This document shows positions 39,882-51,250 of a stretch of DNA of 64,000 nt, one piece after another. Every line of letters begins with the position of its first letter. Position 1 is the first letter of the stretch. Below the pieces are notes generated by a model. It ran no database searches. It worked only from the letters and a program-made list of their open reading frames with translations, and was not told the DNA's origin. Origin of the DNA: Polycladomyces zharkentensis. Lineage in GTDB: Bacteria > Bacillota > Bacilli > Thermoactinomycetales > JIR-001. The stretch covers positions 372,280 through 436,279 of the forward strand of contig NZ_JAFHAP010000008.1 of NCBI RefSeq assembly GCF_016938855.1. The letters are read 5' to 3'. The position numbers were made by a program, and so were the translations under genes.

Positions 39882-40721
39882 TCATTTTCGGACGGGTTGG
39901 TGAATGCTGTCCCTTCCCCGCAAAAACCCGCCCGCGTGACCCTTTCGAAACGCCAGAATCTCCGACAGAATGCTGATCGCCACCTCCTCCGGTGTCTCGG
40001 CACCAATGTCCAAACCTACGGGATTATACATCCGGGTCAGTTTCTCTTCCCCGAAGGTCACCCCTTCCTTTTCCAATGCCTCCAACATCCGTTGACAGCG
40101 AGATCGTGGCCCAAGCACGCCCACATAAGGAGCGGGTGAATTCAAGGCAAGCCGGATGGCAACCCGATCACGCTCCAGGTGATGGTTCATCACAACAACA
40201 TACGTACGTCTCCCGATGATCACGCGTTCCTCCCATAAACCCGAATCGGCCAGAATAATCCGGGCTCCCGGAAAGCGATCCTCGGTGGCGTAGGCCGGGC
40301 GCGGATCCACCACCGTCGTTTTGAACCCCGCCTGGACAGCCAACTTTACCAGCGGAATCGCGTCATGGCCGGCACCGAAAATCATCAGTTCCGACGGAGG
40401 GAGGTTGACGTCGACGAAAACCTCCGCCTCCCTGCCTCCGGGCAAGGAAAATCTGCATGTTTCCGACTTGGGGTACAGGGCCTCCAGTTTTTCTCGTGCC
40501 CGTTCGACGACCAACCTGTTCAAGTCCTCATCGCCCAAGTCTCCGAGGGGTTCGCCGTTCTCGGGGACGAAGAGGCGCATCCCGGTTGGAAGGCCCGGGA
40601 AAGGAGAAAACGCCAGCAATGTGTTCAAAACAGCCGCCCGCTCTTTCTTGAGGCACTCGGTCCATGCGGCAAAGGGGTCGCGATCCGGATCTTGCCGTTC
40701 GTTTTCCTTCCGTACGCTCAT
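39882..40721 (-). CDS. XdhC-type Mo-hydroxylase maturation protein (Rossmann part)
   Basis: A 279-residue protein. The middle contains MIFGAGHDAIPLVKLAVQAGFKTTVVDPRPAYA, the XdhC Rossmann-like nucleotide motif, then VVVMNHHLERDRVA and GVLGPRSRCQRML. The C-terminus keeps NPVGLDIGAETPEEVAISILSEIL. XdhC proteins bind the molybdenum cofactor and help its sulfuration and insertion. ATG 40721 follows AAAGGAGG and overlaps the stop of the small XdhC/CoxI gene (ATGA), so the two likely form one functional unit split across two genes. Confidence 0.9.
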   Translation of the reverse strand: MSVRKENERQDPDRDPFAAWTECLKKERAAVLNTLLAFSPFPGLPTGMRLFVPENGEPLGDLGDEDLNRLVVERAREKLEALYPKSETCRFSLPGGREAEVFVDVNLPPSELMIFGAGHDAIPLVKLAVQAGFKTTVVDPRPAYATEDRFPGARIILADSGLWEERVIIGRRTYVVVMNHHLERDRVAIRLALNSPAPYVGVLGPRSRCQRMLEALEKEGVTFGEEKLTRMYNPVGLDIGAETPEEVAISILSEILAFRKGHAGGFLRGRDSIHQPVRK

Positions 40722-41119
40722 GAGGATGCCTCCTTTCCCGCAAACCCGTCGAATGATGGCGGAGCACCCGCGTCGTTCGTCCCACTCCACGAAACCGGTT
40801 CAATCAACACGTCGACGGTACCCGGGCAGCCCAGCCCCAATCCCCACACGAGATCCTCATCCAAATCGTAGCGTTTGAGGACCGGTTTACCGTCTGCCAT
40901 CACTTGTTTGGCCACTTCCGCTACGTCCGGCTCCAAGCAACCGCCGGAGATCACACCGGTCATCTTACCTTCTTCGTCGATCAGCAATTTTGCGCCTTCC
41001 CGGCGATAGGCGGATCCCTTCACGCGGACAACGGTGGCCAGTGCCATCTTTCTCCCCGCCCGCTTCCCCTCTTCCATTGCCAGAGCGATTTCCCGATTCT
41101 CTTTCACGTCCGTCATCAC
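40718..41119 (-). CDS. XdhC/CoxI N-terminal domain protein
   Basis: 133 residues: ALATVVRVKGSAYRREGAKLLIDEEGKMTGVISGGCLEPDVAEVA and GCPGTVDVLIEP. This is the XdhC_CoxI domain, usually the N-terminal part of XdhC. Residues GGCLE carry the conserved cysteine. It is translationally coupled to the Rossmann-part gene downstream. A third, full-length copy of this architecture is the CoxF-YHS protein at 44099-45106. Confidence 0.9.
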   Translation of the reverse strand: MMTDVKENREIALAMEEGKRAGRKMALATVVRVKGSAYRREGAKLLIDEEGKMTGVISGGCLEPDVAEVAKQVMADGKPVLKRYDLDEDLVWGLGLGCPGTVDVLIEPVSWSGTNDAGAPPSFDGFAGKEASS

Positions 41120-41507: not shown

Positions 41508-42674
41508 CTAAACATCCTGTGTACGCACAGACAACGGCGTCACAGGCACGGAGGAAGGTTGAAAAATCTGACTTTCCTCCACCGCCTGCCGCCAACTTTC
41601 CAAGTCGTGTACGTCGACCAACCGATGGATGTACGGCATTGCGGCGGACATACCGCTCGAGATCGGCTCGTATTCAGGATCTCCGAGCAGAGGATTGAGC
41701 CACACCACATGCCGGACACGTTCAGAAAGCGTCCGCAGAGCGGAGCGCAGGCGCTCGGGATGGCCGGCGTCAAACCCGTCTGATGCGATGATCACGAAAG
41801 TATGTCGCCGCAATAGACCACCGTATTTGTACAGCAACTCCTCAAGCGCTTCTCCGATGCGCGTCCCGCCCTTAAGTTCTGCCAGTTCCGACACCGGGAT
41901 TCCCTGAATCGCTTTGCGCGCCACCAGATGTGTGACGCGCTTGAGCCGAGTCGAGAAGACGAACACTTCGCAGCGCAGGCGCAGACGCGTAAACGACCAC
42001 GCAAGGGTGGTCATGAACGGAGCATACTCCTTCATCGACCCGGAAATGTCGATCAAAATCATAACCGATGGCCGATCCGGACGATACTGTTGCCAATGCA
42101 GGCGGAGCGGTTCTCCCACATAACGAACACTCCCGCGCATCGTCGCGCGCAGATTCACCCGATCGCGCCCCCCACGGCGAAACCGTCGCCCCGGTGGACT
42201 GTCAAATTGTCGTAAAGCCCGCTTGGAGACGGCCAATACCGCCCGCAACCGAGACGGATCGGCCTGCAGGGCGTAGCGTTCTCCCTGACTCGGACTGGAT
42301 CCCGGTTGCATGGCAAAACTCAAGATGGGCGGGTGATCCTGCGTCACAGTTGGACTTCGCGAATTACCGGACCGTTCCTCCGCTTGAACCCGTTTCTTTT
42401 CTTCCAGTCGCGTACCCTGATTCAAAAAGTGGCGCTTGAACAGATGCGGAAACGATGCCCACTCGGCCGGCGATCGGGCGTAGACCGAGCGCAGTGCCAA
42501 AAAGAGTTCTTCCGGCATCGACAGGTCCGCCTCCGTCAAGCACCTGAGCGCGGTCAACGTCTCCGGCGTGCCCACACGAAACCCGTGTTTTCGCAAAAAA
42601 GGGGTAAACTCCCGCACCTGACGAATTACCGCTGCAGTCATCCCCGTCAGTCCGGACAGGTCTAGGCGTTCCAC
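41508..42674 (-). CDS. coxE: CoxE-like VWA-domain protein
   Basis: 388 residues with a C-terminal von Willebrand A domain. The MIDAS sequence DISGS is near residue 209 (VMILIDISGSMKEYAPF), followed by FVFSTRLKRVTHL, LKGGTRIGEALEEL and ASDGFDAGHPE. In Oligotropha CoxE acts with CoxF to insert copper into the Mo-S-Cu centre. GTG 42674 with AAAGGA upstream overlaps the end of coxD by 13 nt. An ATG at 42641 is an alternative. The MoxR-VWA pair is a standard metallocofactor chaperone module. Confidence 0.9.
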   Translation of the reverse strand: MERLDLSGLTGMTAAVIRQVREFTPFLRKHGFRVGTPETLTALRCLTEADLSMPEELFLALRSVYARSPAEWASFPHLFKRHFLNQGTRLEEKKRVQAEERSGNSRSPTVTQDHPPILSFAMQPGSSPSQGERYALQADPSRLRAVLAVSKRALRQFDSPPGRRFRRGGRDRVNLRATMRGSVRYVGEPLRLHWQQYRPDRPSVMILIDISGSMKEYAPFMTTLAWSFTRLRLRCEVFVFSTRLKRVTHLVARKAIQGIPVSELAELKGGTRIGEALEELLYKYGGLLRRHTFVIIASDGFDAGHPERLRSALRTLSERVRHVVWLNPLLGDPEYEPISSGMSAAMPYIHRLVDVHDLESWRQAVEESQIFQPSSVPVTPLSVRTQDV

Positions 42675-43528
42675 AACAGAGCCAGTCCTTTCTCTCGAAC
42701 CAGTTCCATATCTTCCTGCGTCTTCAACAGGCACCCGAGCGTCAGTCGGGTGACCGATTCATCCAACTCTCCTGCCGCCAGCTCGGCAACAGCACGCGCC
42801 CAATCAATCGACTCCGCCAATCCGGGAGGTTTGAGGAGCGACCACTTGCGCAACCGGCGCACCGCGCGTGCTATCTGGCGGGCGACTGTTGGAGCCACAT
42901 CGGGTACATGGAGGGCAATGATCGCCGCCTCCTGCTCCACACTCGGATAATCCAACCAATAGTAAAGACAGCGCCTCCGCAACGCATCCGATAAATCACG
43001 CGTGCGATTGGATGTCAGAATCACCGTCGGCGGTACTTCAGCCCGATAGGATCCCCGTTCCGGAATCGTGATCTGGAACTCTGACAGAAACTCCAGCAAC
43101 AGCGCTTCAAATTCTTCATCCGCCCGATCCACCTCGTCGATCAACAGAACGGGGGCGGGTTTGGTCTTCAACGCACGCAGCAATGGCCGTTCAATCAAGA
43201 AACGGTCGGTGTAGATGTCCGGCGCCTTACCCCCGGCCTCGCCGGAAAATGCAGCCCTGGTCAACAACAGCTGTTTAGGGTAATCCCAATCATACAATGC
43301 ATGTGCAGCATCCAATCCCTCATAGCACTGCAGACGAATCAACTCCACACCGCGAACCACTGACACCGCCTTGGCCAGCTCGGTTTTGCCGACACCGGCC
43401 GGCCCCTCCAACAGCAGAGGCCGGTTCAAACGCTGTGCCAAGTAGAGTACCATGGCCAGTCCTTCGTCTGCCACATATTTGGCGTCCTGCAAATGTTTCC
43501 GCAACTTCTCCACACGATCGTCCACCAT
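42662..43528 (-). CDS. coxD: CoxD-like MoxR-type AAA+ ATPase
   Basis: 288 residues. Walker A is GPAGVGKT at 42-49, Walker B is LLIDEVDRAD with Asp131-Glu132, and sensor-1 is TSNRTRDLSDALRRRC. It reads YDWDYPKQLLL near 80, typical of the CoxD branch. CoxD is known to help sulfurate the molybdenum centre in Oligotropha. The ATPase works with the VWA protein encoded next to it. Order coxL-coxF-coxG-coxD-coxE differs from the Proteobacterial coxMSLDEFG. Confidence 0.92.
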   Translation of the reverse strand: MVDDRVEKLRKHLQDAKYVADEGLAMVLYLAQRLNRPLLLEGPAGVGKTELAKAVSVVRGVELIRLQCYEGLDAAHALYDWDYPKQLLLTRAAFSGEAGGKAPDIYTDRFLIERPLLRALKTKPAPVLLIDEVDRADEEFEALLLEFLSEFQITIPERGSYRAEVPPTVILTSNRTRDLSDALRRRCLYYWLDYPSVEQEAAIIALHVPDVAPTVARQIARAVRRLRKWSLLKPPGLAESIDWARAVAELAAGELDESVTRLTLGCLLKTQEDMELVREKGLALLWNA

Positions 43529-43558: not shown

Positions 43559-44059
43559 TCAGTCCGTCGTCTCGGGTTCCACCGTCTCCGCCGACGTCGC
43601 TGCCACCTGTTCCGACACGGATGAGAGTGCCTCACGCAAATTGGCAAACAGCTTTTCTGTGATTTTCCTGGCTTCATTGTCAATCATCCGACCGCCGAGA
43701 CTGGCGATCGGTCCGCTGATCGCAGCGTCACATCGCCAATCCAGTTTCGTTCCGCCACTTTCCGTGTCACCGAGCGTGACTTTCGCTTTCATATCCACGC
43801 GGCTGCCCATCCCTCCACCTCGGACGGAGAGTTCAGCAGACACTTGCGGCTCGATCACTGACACTTCCACCATCATGTCAAACTTGCCCCGTACGGGCCC
43901 GACACCGACGCGGACAAGTGTGCGAAAGCGGGTCTCGCTCTCCACATCCAGCTTCAGAAGATCCGGAACACACGGTCCTACCCGATGCGGATCCATGATG
44001 AACTCCCACACAGTCTGACGCGGTAATTCAATGGCAAACTCTCCTTGATAGGTTCGCAC
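43559..44059 (-). CDS. coxG: CoxG-like SRPBCC protein
   Basis: 166 residues, MRTYQGEFAIELPRQTVWEFIMDP then SVIEPQVSAELSVRGGGMGS and TKLDWRCDAAISGPIASLGGRMID, characteristic of the carbon monoxide dehydrogenase subunit G (START-like) family. CoxG has been proposed to tie CO dehydrogenase to the membrane or to bind quinone-like ligands. It lies between coxD and the CoxF-YHS gene. Confidence 0.93.
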   Translation of the reverse strand: MRTYQGEFAIELPRQTVWEFIMDPHRVGPCVPDLLKLDVESETRFRTLVRVGVGPVRGKFDMMVEVSVIEPQVSAELSVRGGGMGSRVDMKAKVTLGDTESGGTKLDWRCDAAISGPIASLGGRMIDNEARKITEKLFANLREALSSVSEQVAATSAETVEPETTD

Positions 44060-44098: not shown

Positions 44099-45106
44099 TT
44101 ACCGGGTAATCGCGTACGCTTCCGGTTCTCGTTGAAATTTCCGTAAACAGTGAGGACAACAGAATCCATATGTCTTTCCTTCATGTACCGTACGATAAGG
44201 CGTGTTGTCGAGATCGACAATCATTCCGCAAACCGGGTCGACACCCGTCCCCAGCCGCTGCGCCGTGGCCGCGGGCGCAGCCTTCTCGGTGGCCGGCTGC
44301 GTGTTTACCGCACCTGATGGCGGGTGGTAGCGGACTTCCACCTGCCGGCGCCGCCGCTCGATCATCTGCGCAAAGATGCTGAGTGCGATCTCCTGCGGTC
44401 CCACAGCGCCAATGTCGTAACCGGCAGGCGCGGCGACAAAATCGCAAAACTCTGCCGACGCTCCCGCGCTGAGCAACGCTTCCCGCAGTGAGCGCCAGCG
44501 CTTCGGACTGATGACCACCCCGGCGTAAGCTAACGGGAACTCCCAAAGTGCCAACAGTCCATCATCATCGTACTGTCCCATCGTCGCCACCACCGCGTAC
44601 ATGTCCGACTCATATACCTTCGATACGTTTGTTTTTAAACGGTCTGCCGGATCATTATCGTTCCCTTCCATTTGCTCCAATGCCAGTCGCCGGGGAAACC
44701 ACCCAAACTTCGGAGCCAGTTCCTCCAGCGCCAAGGCAACGGGAGAATCTCCGATCACAAGCAGGAGCGGATCCGGGAGCTTCGGTTCGATAAACAATTC
44801 CACCTCGCCCTCAGAATGGCAGGTCATCGGTAAAACCGTTACCCCCTCCTCCGTCTCGGCGGGTGGATTGGCAGTAATGAGCAGTAATTGGCTCTGACCC
44901 GTTTTGAGACACTGCCGAGCTTGATCCGTCACCAATCCGCGCGTACATTGACCTCCGACAAATCCGAACATCCGGCCGTCGGAAGTAACAACGGCCCGGT
45001 CACCCACGTTGGCCGAACTGGGTCGGACCCGACGGACCACGGTCACCACAGCGTAGGGTTCCCGTCGCTCCTCCAACAAGCGAATCTCGTCCGGTATTGT
45101 ATGCAT
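44099..45106 (-). CDS. coxF: CoxF/XdhC-like maturation protein with C-terminal YHS domain
   Basis: 335 residues in three parts: an XdhC_CoxI domain (about 1-90, with FVGGQCTRGL); a Rossmann part (about 120-260, with LLVIGDSPVALALEEL, GVVISPKRW and APAGYDIGAVGPQEIALSIFAQ); and, after a Pro/Ala linker, a YHS domain (about 285-335) with DPVCGM (Cys293) and YGFCCPHC (Cys316, Cys317, Cys320). YHS domains bind metals such as copper. CoxF is needed for copper insertion into CO dehydrogenase. The start is weak: ATG 45106 lacks a clear ribosome site, and the open frame extends to 45289. It follows coxL by 187 nt. Confidence 0.87.
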   Translation of the reverse strand: MHTIPDEIRLLEERREPYAVVTVVRRVRPSSANVGDRAVVTSDGRMFGFVGGQCTRGLVTDQARQCLKTGQSQLLLITANPPAETEEGVTVLPMTCHSEGEVELFIEPKLPDPLLLVIGDSPVALALEELAPKFGWFPRRLALEQMEGNDNDPADRLKTNVSKVYESDMYAVVATMGQYDDDGLLALWEFPLAYAGVVISPKRWRSLREALLSAGASAEFCDFVAAPAGYDIGAVGPQEIALSIFAQMIERRRRQVEVRYHPPSGAVNTQPATEKAAPAATAQRLGTGVDPVCGMIVDLDNTPYRTVHEGKTYGFCCPHCLRKFQREPEAYAITR

Positions 45107-45293: not shown

Positions 45294-47645
45294 TCACTCG
45301 GTCACTCCGTGCTCGCGCAGGATTTTCCACACCTTCCACGGGTAAATGGGCATGTCAATATGTTCGACCCCCAGCGGTGCCAGGGCGTCCACCACCGCGT
45401 TGACAAACGCCGCCGGCGAACCAACGTTCGGTGACTCACCCACTCCCTTCGCCCCGATGGGATGGTGCGGCGAGGGCGTCACGGTCCGGTCGGTCTCCCA
45501 CTTCGGGGTGTCCAACGCGGTCGGAACCAAGTAATCCATCCAGTTCGTCGCCAGACAGTTTCCGTCCTCGTCGAAGGGGATATCCTGCATAAACGCGATC
45601 GCAAAGCCTTCCGTCAATCCCCCGTGCACCTGCCCCTCGACGATCATCGGGTTGATCACGGTGCCGCAATCGTCGACAGCGAGAAAACGGCGAACTTTGA
45701 CCGCGCCCGTTCCCTTGTCGATGTCGACGACCGCAATATATGCACCGTGGGGAAAAGTGAGATTGGGTGGATCATAATAGTACGTGGCTTCCAACCCGGG
45801 CTCCATTCCCTCCGGCACATTGGTGTACGCCGCAAATGCGATGTCTTTCATCGTGACAGTCCTGCTGGCAAGGCCTTTGGCGGAAAATCCGACGCCATCA
45901 AACACCACATCGTCTTCCCCCACTTCCAGCAGGTGTGCCGCAATTTTCTTTGCCTTTTCGCGGATCCGCCGGGCGCAGAGCGCTGCGGCACCACCGGCGG
46001 TCGGGGTGGAGCGGCTGGCGTAGGTTCCCAGTCCGTAAGGGGCGGTGTCAGTATCCCCCTCTTCGACGATGACATCATCCGTACTCAGCCCCAGCTCCTC
46101 AGCGATGATCTGGGCAAACGTCGTCTCATGCCCCTGTCCCTGGTGACGGACTCCCAAGCGGGCGATCACTTTACCCGTAGGATGGACACGAATTTGGGCG
46201 CTGTCGAACATCTTGATCCCCATGATGTCGAAGGTGTGGCTCGGCCCTGCACCGACCACCTCGGTGAAGGTGGAGATACCGATGCCCATCAATTCCCCTC
46301 GGGCCCGCTTTTCCGCCTGCTCCTTGCGCAACTGTTCATAGCCGATTTTCTCCAGCGCCAACGCCAGCGTTTTCTCATAGTCACCACTGTCGTAGGTCCA
46401 ACCCGTCGGAGACTTGTAAGGGAACTGTTCCTTACGGATGAAGTTGCGTCTCCGCAACTCAGCCGGATCAACGCCCACACGACGAGCGAGCACATCCATC
46501 ACGCGCTCGATCAAATATGCCGCCTCGGTCACGCGGAACGAACAGCGGTAGGCTACCCCGCCGGGTGCCTTGTTTGTATAAACGCCGTCGACCTCGACGA
46601 ACGCCTCCTTGAAGTCGTAGGAGCCGGTAACGATGCTGAACAGTCCAGCCGGGAATTTGGACGGATCGGCCGCCGCGTCAAAGGCTCCGTGATCGGCAAT
46701 CGTTTTTACCCGCAATGCCAGCACCCGCCCGTCTTCTTCAGCGGCGATCTCGGCAGTCATGTGGTAATCGCGGGCAAAACCGGTGCTGGTGGTGTTTTCG
46801 GTACGCGTTTCGATCCACTTGACGGGTTTGCCCAGCTTGAGCGAGGCCACGATGGCGCATACATATCCGGGATAAACAGGGACCTTGTTGCCGAACCCTC
46901 CCCCGACGTCCGGTGAAATCACGCGAATCTGGTGCTCCGGCAGGCCGCTGACCAACGACAAGACTGTGCGGTGCGCATGCGGAGCTTGGGACGTCACGTA
47001 CCATGTCAGCTTCCCGGTCGCCGAATTGTAGTCGGCGATACAGCCGCACGGTTCGAGCGGCGACGGATGGACGCGGGGAAAGCGCACATCCTGCTTGACC
47101 ACCACCGGGGCGTTTCGGAACAGTTCTTCCGTCGCTTCCTTGTCGCCGGCTTCCCAGTGAAAAATGAGGTTGGACTTCTGCTCCCTGTCCTCACGCAGAA
47201 TCGGCGCGTCGGACTCGAGCGCCTTGAACGGATCGACGACGACGGGCAACGGTTCGTACTCGACATAGACCAACTGCGCGGCATCTTCTGCCTGCTCACG
47301 CGTCTCAGCGATAACCGCGGCGACCTCCTGGTACTGAAACAGCACCTTGCCGGTTGCCAGCACCATCTGTTGGTCATTGGCCATGGTCGGCATCCAGGCC
47401 AAGTTCATCGCCGCCAGATCTTCACCAGTGATCACCAGCTTGACGCCCGGCGCTTGCAGCGCAGCCGAAGTATCTATGCTCTTGATCCGCGCATGCGCAT
47501 ACGGGCTGCGGACCAAACACATGTACAGCATGCCGGGCAATGAGATGTCATCGAGATAACGACCTTTGCCGCGGATGAAACGCGGGTCCTCCTTGCGCCC
47601 GACGGACTTGCCCAATGGACGCAACTCAGTCTGACGAACTGCCAC
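45294..47645 (-). CDS. coxL: Aerobic CO dehydrogenase large subunit, form I
   Basis: Oxidises CO with water at a Mo-S-Cu centre. 783 residues from the GTG at 47645, which follows AAGGAGG; the open frame begins 12 codons earlier. The loop AYRCSFR is at about residues 365-371 (Cys368), the signature of form I CO dehydrogenase; the cysteine binds the copper. [21 protein letters not shown] and GAKGVGE (catalytic-type Glu737) are also present. It overlaps coxS by 20 nt. This separates it from xanthine dehydrogenase and form II homologues, which lack the Cys loop. Confidence 0.95.
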
Positions 47646-48141
47646 TGGCTGCCACCTCCTTGGAAGGTTCAGCAGATGCATCGGCCAATTTTACAGCAGC
47701 CGATCGGATGGCTTTCACGATGTTCATATATCCTGTACAACGGCAAAGGTTTCCAGAAATCCCCCTCCGGATCTCCTCTTCCGACGGGTGCGGGTTGGTT
47801 TGCAACAGAGCGTAGCCGGACATCAACATGCCAGGAGTACAGTAGCCGCACTGCAGACCATGTTCCTCCCAAAACGCCGTTTGCAACGGGTGCAACTGGC
47901 CGTCCCGTTCCAACCCTTCAACGGTCATCACATCGCATCCGTTGGCCTGAACAGCCAACACCGTACATGATTTGACCGCCTTGCCGTCGAGCAATACCGT
48001 GCAGGCGCCGCAGCTTGTCGTGTCGCATCCGACGTGGGTACCGGTAAGCCCCAGGTCATCCCGCAAATAGTAGACCAGCAGCTTCCGCGGCTCCACATCG
48101 GATTCATATGTCTGCCCGTTGACGCGAACCCGGATCTTCAT
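47626..48141 (-). CDS. coxS: CO dehydrogenase small [2Fe-2S] subunit
   Basis: 171 residues. Plant-type cluster cysteines are at 39, 44, 47 and 59 ([14 protein letters not shown]...SC) and the second cluster cysteines at 98, 101, 133 and 135 ([15 protein letters not shown]). It passes electrons from the molybdenum subunit to the flavin subunit. It overlaps coxM by 4 nt and coxL by 20 nt, in the order M-S-L found in known cox operons. Confidence 0.96.
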
Positions 48142-49022
48142 CGGAGTACCACCTCTCCCTGCAGTTCTTTGGCGATATCGGACAATCCCCGCTTGGCGAA
48201 CACACGCAGAACATCCCGCTTGTACTCCGCGCTGCCGCGCAGATCATCCGTCGGATCGGCATCTTCCGGAACCAAGCGGGAGACGGCCTCAATCGTCTCC
48301 GGCGTCAGCTTCTTGCCCAGCAAGTACTCCTCCGCACGCTTCCCTCGCAACGGAATCGGGCCGCATGCGCAAATGCCAAACCCCGCCTCGGCTACGGTCC
48401 CGTCGGAAGCAATCGAAACGTGGATGGCCAATCCCGCAATCGCGAAGTCCCCGGCTTTCCGTTCAATCTTCAGATACCTCCCGGCCGTCCGGCCCGCCGG
48501 CGTCGGAATGAGTACCGCCGTTGCGATCTCGGTCTCCTCCAGCGCTGGTGTAAACGTGTCCACGAAAAAGTCGTCGATGGGAATCTGCCGTTTCCCTCCG
48601 GGCCCGATCGCCTCCACCTGGGCATGCAACGCCAACATGGCTGCCCCCCAGTCGGAGGCCGGATCAGCGTGTGCCAACGACCCGCAGACCGTGCCCAGGT
48701 TGCGCACAAGAGGATCGGCGATCCAGACGGCGGTTTCGGCCAACAGCGGGTACCGGGCCCGCAACTCATCCGCATGCTCCAGCTCCGAGTGTCTGACCAA
48801 CGCTCCGATCCGTAGGAAACCGTTTTCTTCTCGCCACCCTTTTAACTCATCAATACCGTTGATGTCGATCAGGATCGGTGGTGCAGCCACACGCAGTTTC
48901 ATCATCGGCAGCAGACTCTGTCCCCCGGCGAGCACTTTCGCGTCGTAGCCGTGACGCTGCAACAGTTCTATCGTCTCCGTCAGCGTGGTGGGGGCTATGT
49001 ACTCAAATGAGTTCGGAAACAA
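48138..49022 (-). CDS. coxM: CO dehydrogenase medium FAD subunit
   Basis: 294 residues. FAD motifs AGGQSLLP (residues 32-39) and [14 protein letters not shown] (111-124) are the two conserved glycine-rich segments of this family. TTG 49022 is preferred because AAAGGAGG lies 7 nt upstream and the length then fits the family; the frame is open to 49160 without support. First gene of the cox operon; it passes electrons to the quinone pool. Confidence 0.93.
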
Positions 49023-50092
49023 CGCAGTACCTCCTTTGATGATTGTTTTGCCTTGCGGCCGAATGGACGCTTCCAATCCCGAACACCATACTGATCGGCC
49101 TGACTTGATTGTCTGCAAATGGCGGAGTCCACGATAAACGGATCCCCATCGTCTCGACAACCGGACACCATTGTGGTGTGAGCAAATTCAGTAAGCGGTT
49201 TCAAATAAGGTTGAAGACGGGGAATGATGGATGTTGATTCGGATCTCCTTCAAACACAGCGATATGCAACGATATGGCACGACCGATCTGACTGCTAATC
49301 ATCCATATTTCCTTCATAACGCCGGACACCCGCACGCTTTATATCGGGGTTGCCTATTTTTTATAATAAGCAGAATAAATGATGAAGTCAATTATTTTTA
49401 TATATTTATAATTATTAAAATATTGATCGAATATTGATTGAAATGTACGAGACTGGTGATCTGTTGATGGATAAGAGATGATAACATCGTTAACCAAAGA
49501 GTATTTACTTGTTCCGGGTAGACGATCTTAGGGCAGTCGATCTCCTGCCATGGGTATCCGACCTGCCAACCGCTCGTAATTTTCAAGTCGTAAGGCTTGT
49601 CAGTATCCGGTGTCAACCCGACGGCTTCACTTATAAGCCATAGCGATCCTAGTGAAACGGCCGTATTGCCAACTATTTTACCGCTAACTACGAATCCAGA
49701 AAGGCCCACTGAGGCCTTCTGCTTTTCGTTCTGATGACTTTTTTCCGGATGACCATTTCCCTGTCCACGTTATTGATACTCTTTCATTGGATTGGAGATC
49801 CCTCATTCTGATAGATGATTTGGCCGATACGGGGACCGCGACCAAGCGACAGCTGCTTGTTGTTACCGGCTGGACTGCAAACCGGCTGAAATTCACCTCC
49901 AATGGATCGGTAAGCGTGAAAATGAGGAGGTACCTTATGGTTTCAGCATATAAAGGGGATCATAGACGCGCGCTCATTCGCTGAATATAGCAGGAATTCG
50001 CCACATCAGTGATAATGTAGGATTGGACACCACATTGTGTTTTCGGGCTTTTTGTGCAATCGAGAACCCTCTGTGTTATCCCCGGGTATCTC
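49023..50092. other. Low-GC 1-kb region upstream of coxM with orphan fragments
   Basis: No intact gene is supported. A minus-strand frame at 49398-49709 (103 codons, with SGKIVGNTAVSLGSLWLISE and LKITSGWQVGYPW) looks coding-like but ends in AT-rich sequence and has no clear ribosome site. A plus-strand frame ending at 49984 (IDDLADTGTATKRQLLVVTG, TANRLKF) recalls a winged-helix protein fragment, possibly of plasmid replication-relaxation type. Both may be remnants of mobile DNA. Confidence 0.45.
49363..49391 (-). promoter_or_regulatory. SigA-type promoter of the cox operon
   Basis: Minus strand TTGACT (49391-49386), 17 nt, TATTAT (49368-49363), within the only strongly AT-rich stretch of the region. 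It gives a leader of about 335 nt before coxM. No riboswitch was recognised in that leader. Confidence 0.65.
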
Positions 50093-51250
50093 CTATTTGA
50101 CGACCGGCCATTTCTTCTTCCGCAGTGCGTTCATTAACTCCGGTCCCACATGCAAGTTGCTCTGTACCAGCTCAGAAGGAGTCAGTGCCATCCACTGGTT
50201 CAGCGACACGTCTTCATATCGGTCAGTCTTGAATATCTCAAAAAACCACAGGCTCTTGTCACCGATGTTCTGGATGTAGTGCCCGTAGGAACGAGGTACA
50301 TATCCTACATCACCGGCCCGATAATTGAAAGTTCGGGCCTTGCCATTCGCTGCGAACACCGTCATGCGTGCCGTGCCCGAGAGGTAATACTGCCACTCGT
50401 CGCTATTCGGATGCCAATGCATTTCCCTCATTCCGCCCGGTTTGACTTCTACCAGCGCCGCTGCAATTGTAGTCGAAACGGGGAAGTTGGTGGAATCGAC
50501 GATTCGTACCGTCCCGCCCGGGGTTACGATCGGCTTCTGCGCCAGCAGCCGGTGTGTGAAGGGCTGTGGCACAGTACCGTATGGAGACCGTACCTTTTGA
50601 CTTTCCAGCGGACCGGGTACTTTCGCTTGATAAATGTATCGCTGTTCTGTCGGGATGTGGGCAAAGGCGCTTTCCGGCACACCGAAATTCGCCGCCAACA
50701 CATCCTTCGGTGTGTGCGCGAACCAATCGGAGATGGAGAGAGTGTTGAGGTCGGAGAAACTGCCGTCGTCGAAAACAAGCAGAAACTCGCAACCTTCCTC
50801 CAGCCCTTGAATCGAGTGTGGGATTCCGGCGGGAAAATACCACAGATCGCCTGCACCGACATCGGCGATGAAGTTCCGTCCGTTCTGATCAACCGCGGTG
50901 ATGCGTGCCCGGCCCCAAAGCATGTAGGACCATTCTGCTTGCTGATGCCAATGTAACTCACGCACACCACCCGGCGTCAGACTCATGTTTACACCCGCAA
51001 GCGCGGTTGCGATCGGCAGTTGTCTGACCGTCACTTCCCGTGACCAGCCACCGTGATTCAACTGCATATTGGTGTCGGAGAAAGAGAACTTCAAGTTGGG
51101 GATCGTTCCGGCGTCGGTTTCCGGTGGAACCAGCATATCAGGGTTCTCAAGGTCGCGCATCACATCCCGCGGGCCGAAATCGGGCGCGCCGGCGCCATCA
51201 TCCCTTATCGGCTGCGGTATATATGCCTGATTCCGAGATTGGTTTTTCAT
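50093..51250 (-). CDS. oxdC: Oxalate decarboxylase-like bicupin with altered lid
   Basis: 385 residues with two Mn cupins: ligands His100, His102, Glu106 and His145, and His278, His280, Glu285 and His324. The C-terminal-site Glu338 (FFEIF), equivalent to OxdC Glu333, is present. The N-terminal active-site lid, SENST in B. subtilis OxdC, is SDLNT here (166-170). The proton-donating Glu is thus replaced by Asp and Asn by Leu. OxdC makes formate and CO2 from oxalate; altered lids can shift activity to oxidation. No signal peptide is seen. The nearest gene downstream is coxM, about 1 kb away and with its own promoter. Confidence 0.9.

What the first reader, a model, noticed from the sequence alone, without database searches (positions are those of the whole stretch)
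44099..45106. CoxF-like maturation factor fused to a Cys-rich YHS domain: possible copper chaperone
The C-terminal about 50 residues carry DPVCGM and FCCPHC on an XdhC/CoxF body. In Oligotropha, CoxE and CoxF are required to put copper into the Mo-S-Cu site of CO dehydrogenase, but the copper source is unclear. A YHS (TRASH-like, metal-binding) domain fused to CoxF would bring the metal directly. The clustered CoxL has the form I Cys loop that binds this copper. I am not aware of this fusion being described.
Basis: partly seen in the sequence, partly recalled or inferred. Interest (0 to 1): 0.8.

Follow-up and report, generated by a model that had tools for sequence, protein, structure and literature searches.

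The report
CO-dehydrogenase assembly factor with copper-type arm
A helper protein that builds the copper-containing CO-oxidising enzyme of bacteria carries an extra small metal-binding arm; this arm turns out to be widespread with that enzyme but missing in the textbook model organism, which suggests a testable answer to how the copper gets in.

Summary
Confirmed: window 44099-45106(-) encodes 335 aa, XdhC_CoxI + XdhC_C + a C-terminal YHS domain (53.6 bits, cut-off 30.3), inside a full form I cox cluster. It is the CoxF orthologue: CoxF of Oligotropha (Afipia) carboxidovorans falls in the same 100/100 clade, but that protein has no YHS. The fusion is not peculiar to this genome. Of 299 Bacilli genomes, all 19 with CoxL over the cut-off have it; of 396 Actinomycetota genomes, 52 of the 56 assessable with CoxL; of 19 form I plasmid records, 6 have it (Thermomicrobiota, Halobacteria, Betaproteobacteria, Deinococcota) and the 12 alphaproteobacterial ones lack it. 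In what I examined, no XdhC beside a copper-free Mo hydroxylase carries it. Best reading: a mobile copper-handling arm for loading the Mo-S-Cu site. That CoxF supplies copper was proposed in 2014 from another motif; my open-PMC searches found no paper on the YHS arm. Copper binding is untested.

The parts
44099..45106 (-). coxF-YHS gene: XdhC_CoxI + XdhC_C + linker + YHS, 335 aa
   Evidence: CoxF clade
44111..44239 (-). YHS domain (residues 290-332); predicted ligands D290, C293, C316, C320
   Evidence: (same place in genome coordinates)
44261..44338 (-). linker, residues 257-282, predicted disordered (pLDDT under 50)
44807..44821 (-). CxSxG motif (residues 96-100), at the place of the published putative Cu motif M107CPSHGTM of O. 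carboxidovorans CoxF
45294..47681 (-). coxL, form I large subunit with AYRCSFR loop (Cys380)
47626..48141 (-). coxS, [2Fe-2S] subunit
48138..49160 (-). coxM, FAD subunit
43559..44059 (-). coxG
   Evidence: PF06240
42662..43528 (-). coxD, MoxR-type AAA+ ATPase (by place and AAA match)
41508..42734 (-). coxE, VWA protein
   Evidence: PF05762
40718..41119 (-). second XdhC (CoxI-like), N-terminal half as its own ORF, no YHS
   Evidence: PF02625
39882..40790 (-). second XdhC (CoxI-like), Rossmann half, no YHS
   Evidence: PF13478
39096..39842 (-). MobA-like NTP transferase, probably for the Mo cofactor nucleotide (inferred)
   Evidence: PF12804
37672..38685 (-). MoaA-like molybdopterin synthesis protein
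   Evidence: PF06463, PF04055

Best explanation
The protein is CoxF, the maturation factor of form I (Mo-S-Cu) CO dehydrogenase, with a C-terminal YHS domain on a flexible linker. Proposed mechanism: the YHS arm binds one copper ion through D290, C293, C316 and C320, keeps it from damaging the sulfurated Mo cofactor, and brings it to CoxF docked on apo-CO dehydrogenase. There the ion passes, possibly through the C54/C96 site of the XdhC body, to the Mo-SH group and Cys380 of CoxL, while CoxD and CoxE remodel the apoenzyme. The arm was probably present in the ancestor of form I CoxF and was lost in Alphaproteobacteria, including the model organism, and a few Actinomycetota. Shown here: architecture, orthology, the link with form I, ligand conservation. 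Inferred: copper as the metal, delivery as the role, the path of the ion, loss rather than a second gain.
For: Architecture. Orthology: O. carboxidovorans CoxF lies in the same clade, 100/100. Published coxE and coxF mutants make CO dehydrogenase without Cu, and Cu(I) restores activity in vitro (PMC4240915, section 23 and passages). Form I link: 19 of 19 Bacilli genomes with CoxL over the cut-off; 51 of 58 Actinomycetota genomes with CoxL by profile and 1 by eye, 4 without, 2 cut by contig ends; a Bacilli genome with an AYRGAGR loop has an XdhC without YHS; four loci have both kinds of large subunit and the only YHS sits on the CoxF (L057, L065, L066, L111). Ligands: D,C,C,C in 80 of 83 and N,C,C,C in 2; C293-C316 spacing 23 in 78 of 83, C316-C320 spacing 4 in 83 of 83. 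This is the spacing of D178/C181/C204/C208 in the M. phlei cyclase, which Cu2+ activates with Mg2+ and six other metal ions do not (PMC4626032). CxSxG: C96 and G100 in 100 of 100, S98 in 99 of 100 form I CoxF rows, unlike the 18 other XdhC rows. Linker disordered, YHS blocks 291-330 at pLDDT 79-86.
Against: No copper binding shown. O. carboxidovorans makes copper-loaded enzyme without a YHS. Its coxE and coxF mutants each lacked both proteins, so even there the copper role is not pinned on CoxF alone. Deinococcus sp. AJ005 has an AYRCSFR CoxL but a YHS that lost three of the four ligand positions. YHS domains elsewhere can be sensors or have no known role (PMC4626032). Four Actinomycetota of the sample and Nonomuraea gerenzanensis have form I CoxL and no YHS in the locus. 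The form I link is one clade, so not many independent events. The host genome also has ordinary HMA domains, one in a 75-residue CopZ-sized ORF near an 829-aa ORF with two, so another copper source may exist. The model rests on 5 sequences (mean pLDDT 73, pTM 0.56), so domain placement is unknown.
Confidence: 0.5

Rival explanations
1. The YHS domain is a copper gate or sensor: copper binding switches CoxF between docking states, as in the M. phlei cyclase, but the copper that enters the active site comes from elsewhere (CopZ, glutathione) and uses the CxSxG site of the XdhC body.
For: In the one study of a YHS domain that I found it is a probable copper-triggered switch. CxSxG is present in all 100 form I CoxF rows bar one Ser, including the YHS-less ones, so the core function does not need the YHS. 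HMA-type proteins are in the genome.
Against: I know of no regulated activity of CoxF. A sensor on the carrier itself would be unusual (inference).
Confidence: 0.22
2. The domain is a zinc-stabilised docking module for CoxL, CoxE or CoxD and never exchanges its metal.
For: Related domains can be structural: the TRASH-domain protein L24e binds Cd in a crystal, and for the phenol hydroxylase domain no role is known (PMC4626032; sequence match). The Deinococcus copy still scores 75 bits with ligands lost.
Against: Four ligand positions are kept in a fast-changing tail. A docking module has no obvious reason to be confined to copper-type enzymes.
Confidence: 0.18
3. The cysteines carry sulfane sulfur for Mo sulfuration, not metal.
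For: XdhC proteins are thought to assist Mo sulfuration through a cysteine desulfurase (PMC4240915).
Against: All xanthine-oxidase-family enzymes with a Mo=S ligand would need this, yet I saw no XdhC outside the form I clade with a YHS. In O. carboxidovorans sulfuration was assigned to CoxD, and coxF mutants still contained sulfurated Mo, besides unsulfurated Mo.
Confidence: 0.06
4. The fusion is a passenger: gained in the form I CoxF ancestor, without a role in copper loading, and slowly decaying.
For: One clade explains the link; the tree needs four losses outside Alphaproteobacteria, plus one loss there or a second gain; the domain scores low in several Actinomycetota.
Against: Kept in 19 of 19 Bacilli, with ligands intact in 80 of 83 copies in proteins down to 29% identical to the window's.
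Confidence: 0.04

Closest known systems
CoxF of Oligotropha (Afipia) carboxidovorans OM5
   Same: Orthologue: same gene cluster, same two XdhC domains, CxSxG motif, 36.5% identity over residues 6-254.
   Different: 280 aa, ends after the XdhC body, no YHS; its C-terminal RHGQRQS (the published phytase motif) is not in the window protein.
YHS domain of the Mycobacterium phlei adenylyl cyclase (PMC4626032)
   Same: C-terminal YHS on a linker; identical spacing of the Asp and three Cys ligand positions.
   Different: Fused to a cyclase and acts as a probable Cu2+ switch; no delivery role.
XdhC of Rhodobacter capsulatus and PaoD (PMC2997495, passages; partly recalled)
   Same: XdhC family, maturing xanthine-oxidase-family enzymes.
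   Different: No copper in the client enzyme. Not examined here directly; among 18 non-CoxF XdhC rows 11 have CGG and none has CxSxG with a YHS.
NorQD and MSMEG_0748/0751 MoxR-VWA pairs (PMC12657314, passages)
   Same: AAA+/VWA helpers linked to metal-enzyme maturation, like CoxD and CoxE here.
   Different: They are thought to be remodellers; no metal-donor domain was described in what I read.

Membership tests
CoxF (form I CO dehydrogenase maturation factor) | XdhC_CoxI and XdhC_C domains | tested here: met
CoxF (form I CO dehydrogenase maturation factor) | Clade with O. carboxidovorans CoxF, apart from other XdhC | tested here: met
   100/100 clade, 82 rows against 6 outgroup rows; with 118 rows, CoxI-like ones included, again a fully supported clade of 100 rows
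CoxF (form I CO dehydrogenase maturation factor) | Gene beside form I coxL, coxD, coxE | tested here: met
CoxF (form I CO dehydrogenase maturation factor) | Required for copper in the enzyme | not testable with these tools
   published for O. carboxidovorans, where coxE and coxF mutants each lacked both proteins (PMC4240915)
YHS domain (PF04945) | Score over the curated cut-off | tested here: met
   53.6 against 30.3 bits
YHS domain (PF04945) | Predicted metal ligands Asp and three Cys | tested here: met
   D290, C293, C316, C320; 80 of 83 copies
Copper chaperone (functional class) | Binds Cu(I) tightly and exchangeably | not testable with these tools
   no binding data for this domain found
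Copper chaperone (functional class) | Confined to a copper-requiring client | tested here: met
   within the samples examined; not phylogenetically independent
Histidine acid phytase (proposed for CoxF in PMC4240915) | RHGxRxP-like motif at the C-terminus | tested here: not met
   RHG.R is in 2 of 119 extracted XdhC rows, O. carboxidovorans and Rhizobium jaguaris; absent from the window protein

The most novel reading that the evidence does not exclude
In most lineages of aerobic CO oxidisers the copper of the Mo-S-Cu site is loaded by a YHS arm built into CoxF. The arm is ancestral, and the organism on which the known maturation genetics was done has lost it, so the published copper route (phytate and a phytase motif) describes at best a derived case.
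Probability: 0.38. Interest if true: 0.75.

Novelty: new variant of a known kind. Interest (0 to 1): 0.62.

Why it matters
The Mo-S-Cu cluster of aerobic CO dehydrogenase is called unprecedented in nature (PMC4240915), and how copper reaches it is unsettled; that paper calls protein-level work on CoxD, CoxE and CoxF a challenge for the future. A small, separable, conserved domain with a likely metal site on CoxF gives a handle that can be purified, mutated and swapped. It also suggests that organisms other than O. carboxidovorans are better models for this step, and that expression of form I enzymes in other hosts may need the matching CoxF-YHS.

Tried and rejected
Phytase route: the RHGxR motif of the published model is in 2 of 119 extracted XdhC rows, O. 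carboxidovorans and Rhizobium jaguaris, so I do not carry it over. Copper-free Mo hydroxylases with the fusion: looked for in plasmids (6 of 135 records cover at least 80% of the query, all six among the 19 form I records), Bacillota (of the listed rows only G000, G055 and G094 run through both parts; list cut) and Actinomycetota (list cut); none found. XdhC frames whose nearest large subunit has another loop: 7, none fused. MHYT proteins as an alternative copper handler: a MHYT profile hits 9 of 9 alphaproteobacterial loci read, and two YHS loci (Paraburkholderia, annotated there as a LytTR protein, and Caballeronia, not annotated). The profile was built from six of those nine loci, and the pattern is confounded with phylum; I draw nothing from it. 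Eight hits (L006-L013) are YHS domains on an unrelated N-terminal part and were left out. YHS-only rows (L129-L131) are other proteins and were left out of counts. Ancestral presence against a second gain in Betaproteobacteria: equal parsimony (6 changes either way on the tree); I prefer loss because the same fusion at the same place twice is less likely. Foldseek: the six PDB matches at E 0.001 or better are XdhC folds (2we7, 2we8, 3on5); I recognised none for the YHS part among the 50 listed of 1383.

Rows dropped: contig-edge CoxF rows (L083, L087, L116, L117) and the front half of the frameshifted L149 were not counted as lacking YHS; L132 and L135 are copies of L003 and L005; L090 (G639) is counted as YHS by eye, as it fell below my profile threshold; L148 gave no ligand match because my search window cut it. 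The tree left out 30 of the 118 rows (near copies, edge or long-branch rows, CoxI-like rows). Sampling limits: Thermomicrobiota, Halobacteria, Deinococcota and Proteobacteria were seen only through plasmids; I read 15 of the 19 form I plasmid loci (10 of 13 unfused, 5 of 6 fused).

Full report
What is there. The gene at 44099-45106 on the minus strand encodes 335 residues from an ATG. Pfam finds XdhC_CoxI at 13-75, XdhC_C at 115-248 and YHS at 290-332, all over their cut-offs. The order on the minus strand is coxM, coxS, coxL, this gene, coxG, coxD, coxE, a second XdhC split in two overlapping frames, a MobA-like protein and a MoaA-like protein. CoxL scores 1272.8 bits with the CO dehydrogenase model (cut-off 991) and has the loop AYRCSFR. 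The YHS is the only one found in the genome assembly. The nearest named relatives, 77% identical, are in Thermoflavimicrobium and Melghirimyces.

Which XdhC it is. A tree of the XdhC body with the YHS columns left out puts it, with CoxF of O. carboxidovorans, in a clade with 100/100 support (88 rows, 30 of the 118 rows left out). The clade is marked by C-x-S-x-G at residues 96-100: C96 and G100 in 100 of 100 rows and S98 in 99 of 100, where the other 18 XdhC rows have CGG (11) or something else. This is the place of the putative Cu-binding motif M107CPSHGTM that Pelzmann and colleagues named in CoxF (PMC4240915; abstract, section 23 and passages seen; positions 107 and 266 checked on the plasmid's gene). 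So the gene is coxF.

How widespread the fusion is. Bacilli: 299 genomes, 19 with CoxL over the cut-off, all 19 with CoxF-YHS (one, G707, is split over two frames). Three other Bacilli are informative: G744 has an AYRGAGR loop (the form II type, name recalled) and an XdhC without YHS; G728 has an unfused XdhC and no CoxL match; G713 has a truncated CoxF-YHS and no coxL in the 19.5 kb read, an apparent decay remnant. Actinomycetota: 396 genomes, 58 with CoxL at E 1e-250 or better (56 over the cut-off); 51 have CoxF-YHS by profile, one more by eye (L090), four lack it (G299, G451, G626, G682), two are cut by contig ends. Plasmids: 384 records have a Mo-hydroxylase large subunit at E 1e-50, 19 of them form I (57.6% identity or more; the next listed is 43%); 6 of the 19 have the fusion and 13 do not, namely 12 Alphaproteobacteria and one Nonomuraea. 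I read 15 of these 19 loci; all 15 have the CSF loop.

Does it track with form I only. Of 83 fused reading frames in the fetched loci, 73 have a CSF-loop large subunit nearest, 6 a form-I-like piece whose loop lies beyond the contig end, 4 no large subunit on the piece, none another loop. Of 87 unfused XdhC frames there, 15 are CoxF-like frames beside form I CoxL and not cut by a contig end (nine alphaproteobacterial, six actinobacterial including L090), 7 are nearest to another loop, and most of the rest are the second XdhC of form I clusters. These loci were chosen by similarity to CoxF, so I also ran looser searches. In 149 Actinomycetota genomes the 150 listed rows comprise, by my count, 26 fused CoxF (three of them in two rows), 8 YHS-only rows on other contigs, and 113 XdhC rows without YHS, two of which are form I CoxF (G299, and G318 at a contig end) (the list is cut). 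In 299 Bacillota genomes only three listed XdhC rows run through a YHS, all beside form I CoxL (list cut). The association is mostly one shared ancestry. Parsimony needs 6 changes; one gain at the base with five losses, and two gains with four losses, cost the same.

The metal site. In the M. phlei cyclase the predicted ligands are D178, C181, C204 and C208; Cu2+ switches that enzyme on with Mg2+, six other metal ions do not (PMC4626032; abstract and passages seen). D290, C293, C316 and C320 have exactly that spacing. Among 83 matched tails 80 have D,C,C,C, two N,C,C,C, and one (Deinococcus sp. AJ005) has lost three of the four. L086 has two YHS domains in a row, both with the four ligands.

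Structure. An AlphaFold model from five sequences has mean pLDDT 73 and pTM 0.56: a folded XdhC body, a linker at 257-282 under 50, and a YHS whose blocks 291-330 have 79-86. Its significant PDB matches are the XdhC folds 2we7/2we8 and 3on5. Relative placement of the domains cannot be read from it.

Mechanism. Published: coxE and coxF mutants make CO dehydrogenase that lacks copper (each mutant lacked both proteins), the 2014 model has CoxF escort the ion, and Cu(I) restores activity in vitro (PMC4240915). Cytoplasmic excess of Cu+ is a potent inhibitor of xanthine-oxidase-family enzymes in vivo (PMC10434068, passages), so guarded delivery makes sense (inference). I therefore propose that the YHS arm picks up copper and hands it over at the docked apoenzyme, perhaps through C54/C96, with CoxD and CoxE remodelling the enzyme. 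Only architecture, distribution and conservation are shown; metal identity and transfer are inferred. O. carboxidovorans shows that copper loading can do without the arm.

What is known. CoxF as copper supplier is in print since 2014. For the YHS fusion I searched 5.39 million open PMC papers: XdhC with 'YHS domain' 0; CoxF with carbon monoxide dehydrogenase and YHS 0; YHS with coxL 0; TRASH domain with XdhC, CoxF or CO dehydrogenase: 17 papers held two of the four terms, and none of the 15 listed held 'TRASH domain'. The word YHS is absent from the main text of PMC4240915, PMC2997495, PMC10434068, PMC12657314, PMC9164220, PMC7248562 and PMC10609526 (word searches, not full reading). Subscription papers and preprints were not searchable, and domain databases probably list the architecture. 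I call it a new variant of a known kind.

Score. The fusion is usual for form I CoxF in the samples, not a rarity of this genome. What is of interest is that it is the rule in the groups sampled outside Alphaproteobacteria, was found only with the copper enzyme, and is absent from the organism on which the maturation genetics that I read was done.

Noticed in passing
window 39882-41119 (-): The second XdhC (CoxI-like) is split into two overlapping frames, an XdhC_CoxI half (40718-41119) and a Rossmann half (39882-40790); three related loci (L003, L133, L134) show two separate XdhC frames at the same place.
   Followed up: partly
L019-L021, L152-L154, L156-L158: All nine YHS-less alphaproteobacterial form I loci read have a MHYT-profile protein upstream of the cox genes (up to about 8 kb away; profile built from six of them). 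Of the YHS-bearing loci only L016 and L017 hit it, and that of L016 is annotated as a LytTR regulator. Confounded with phylum.
   Followed up: partly
L086:9304-10404 (-): A CoxF with two YHS domains in tandem, both with the Asp and three Cys positions.
   Followed up: no
L148:9378-10106 (+): A decayed cox cluster in a Bacilli genome: no coxL in the stretch, CoxF cut at its N-terminus, its YHS still intact, frames that look by eye like CoxG and an AAA+ ATPase downstream.
   Followed up: partly
L114 and L015, CoxF tails: CC-rich stretches (GGGCCGHG at the end of L114, CCGGG in the linker of L015), possible extra metal ligands.
   Followed up: no
L091, L095, L097-L113, L155 CoxL: A group of Actinomycetota has AYACSFR in place of AYRCSFR in CoxL; many of their YHS domains score low.
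   Followed up: no
L006-L013: Nonomuraea and Microbispora proteins with a C-terminal YHS very like this one (DPVCGAT...YGFCCPHC) on an unrelated N-terminal part of about 150 residues.
   Followed up: no
window 50093-51250 (-): A bicupin of the oxalate decarboxylase family (TIGR03404, 596 bits) upstream of the cox genes.
   Followed up: no
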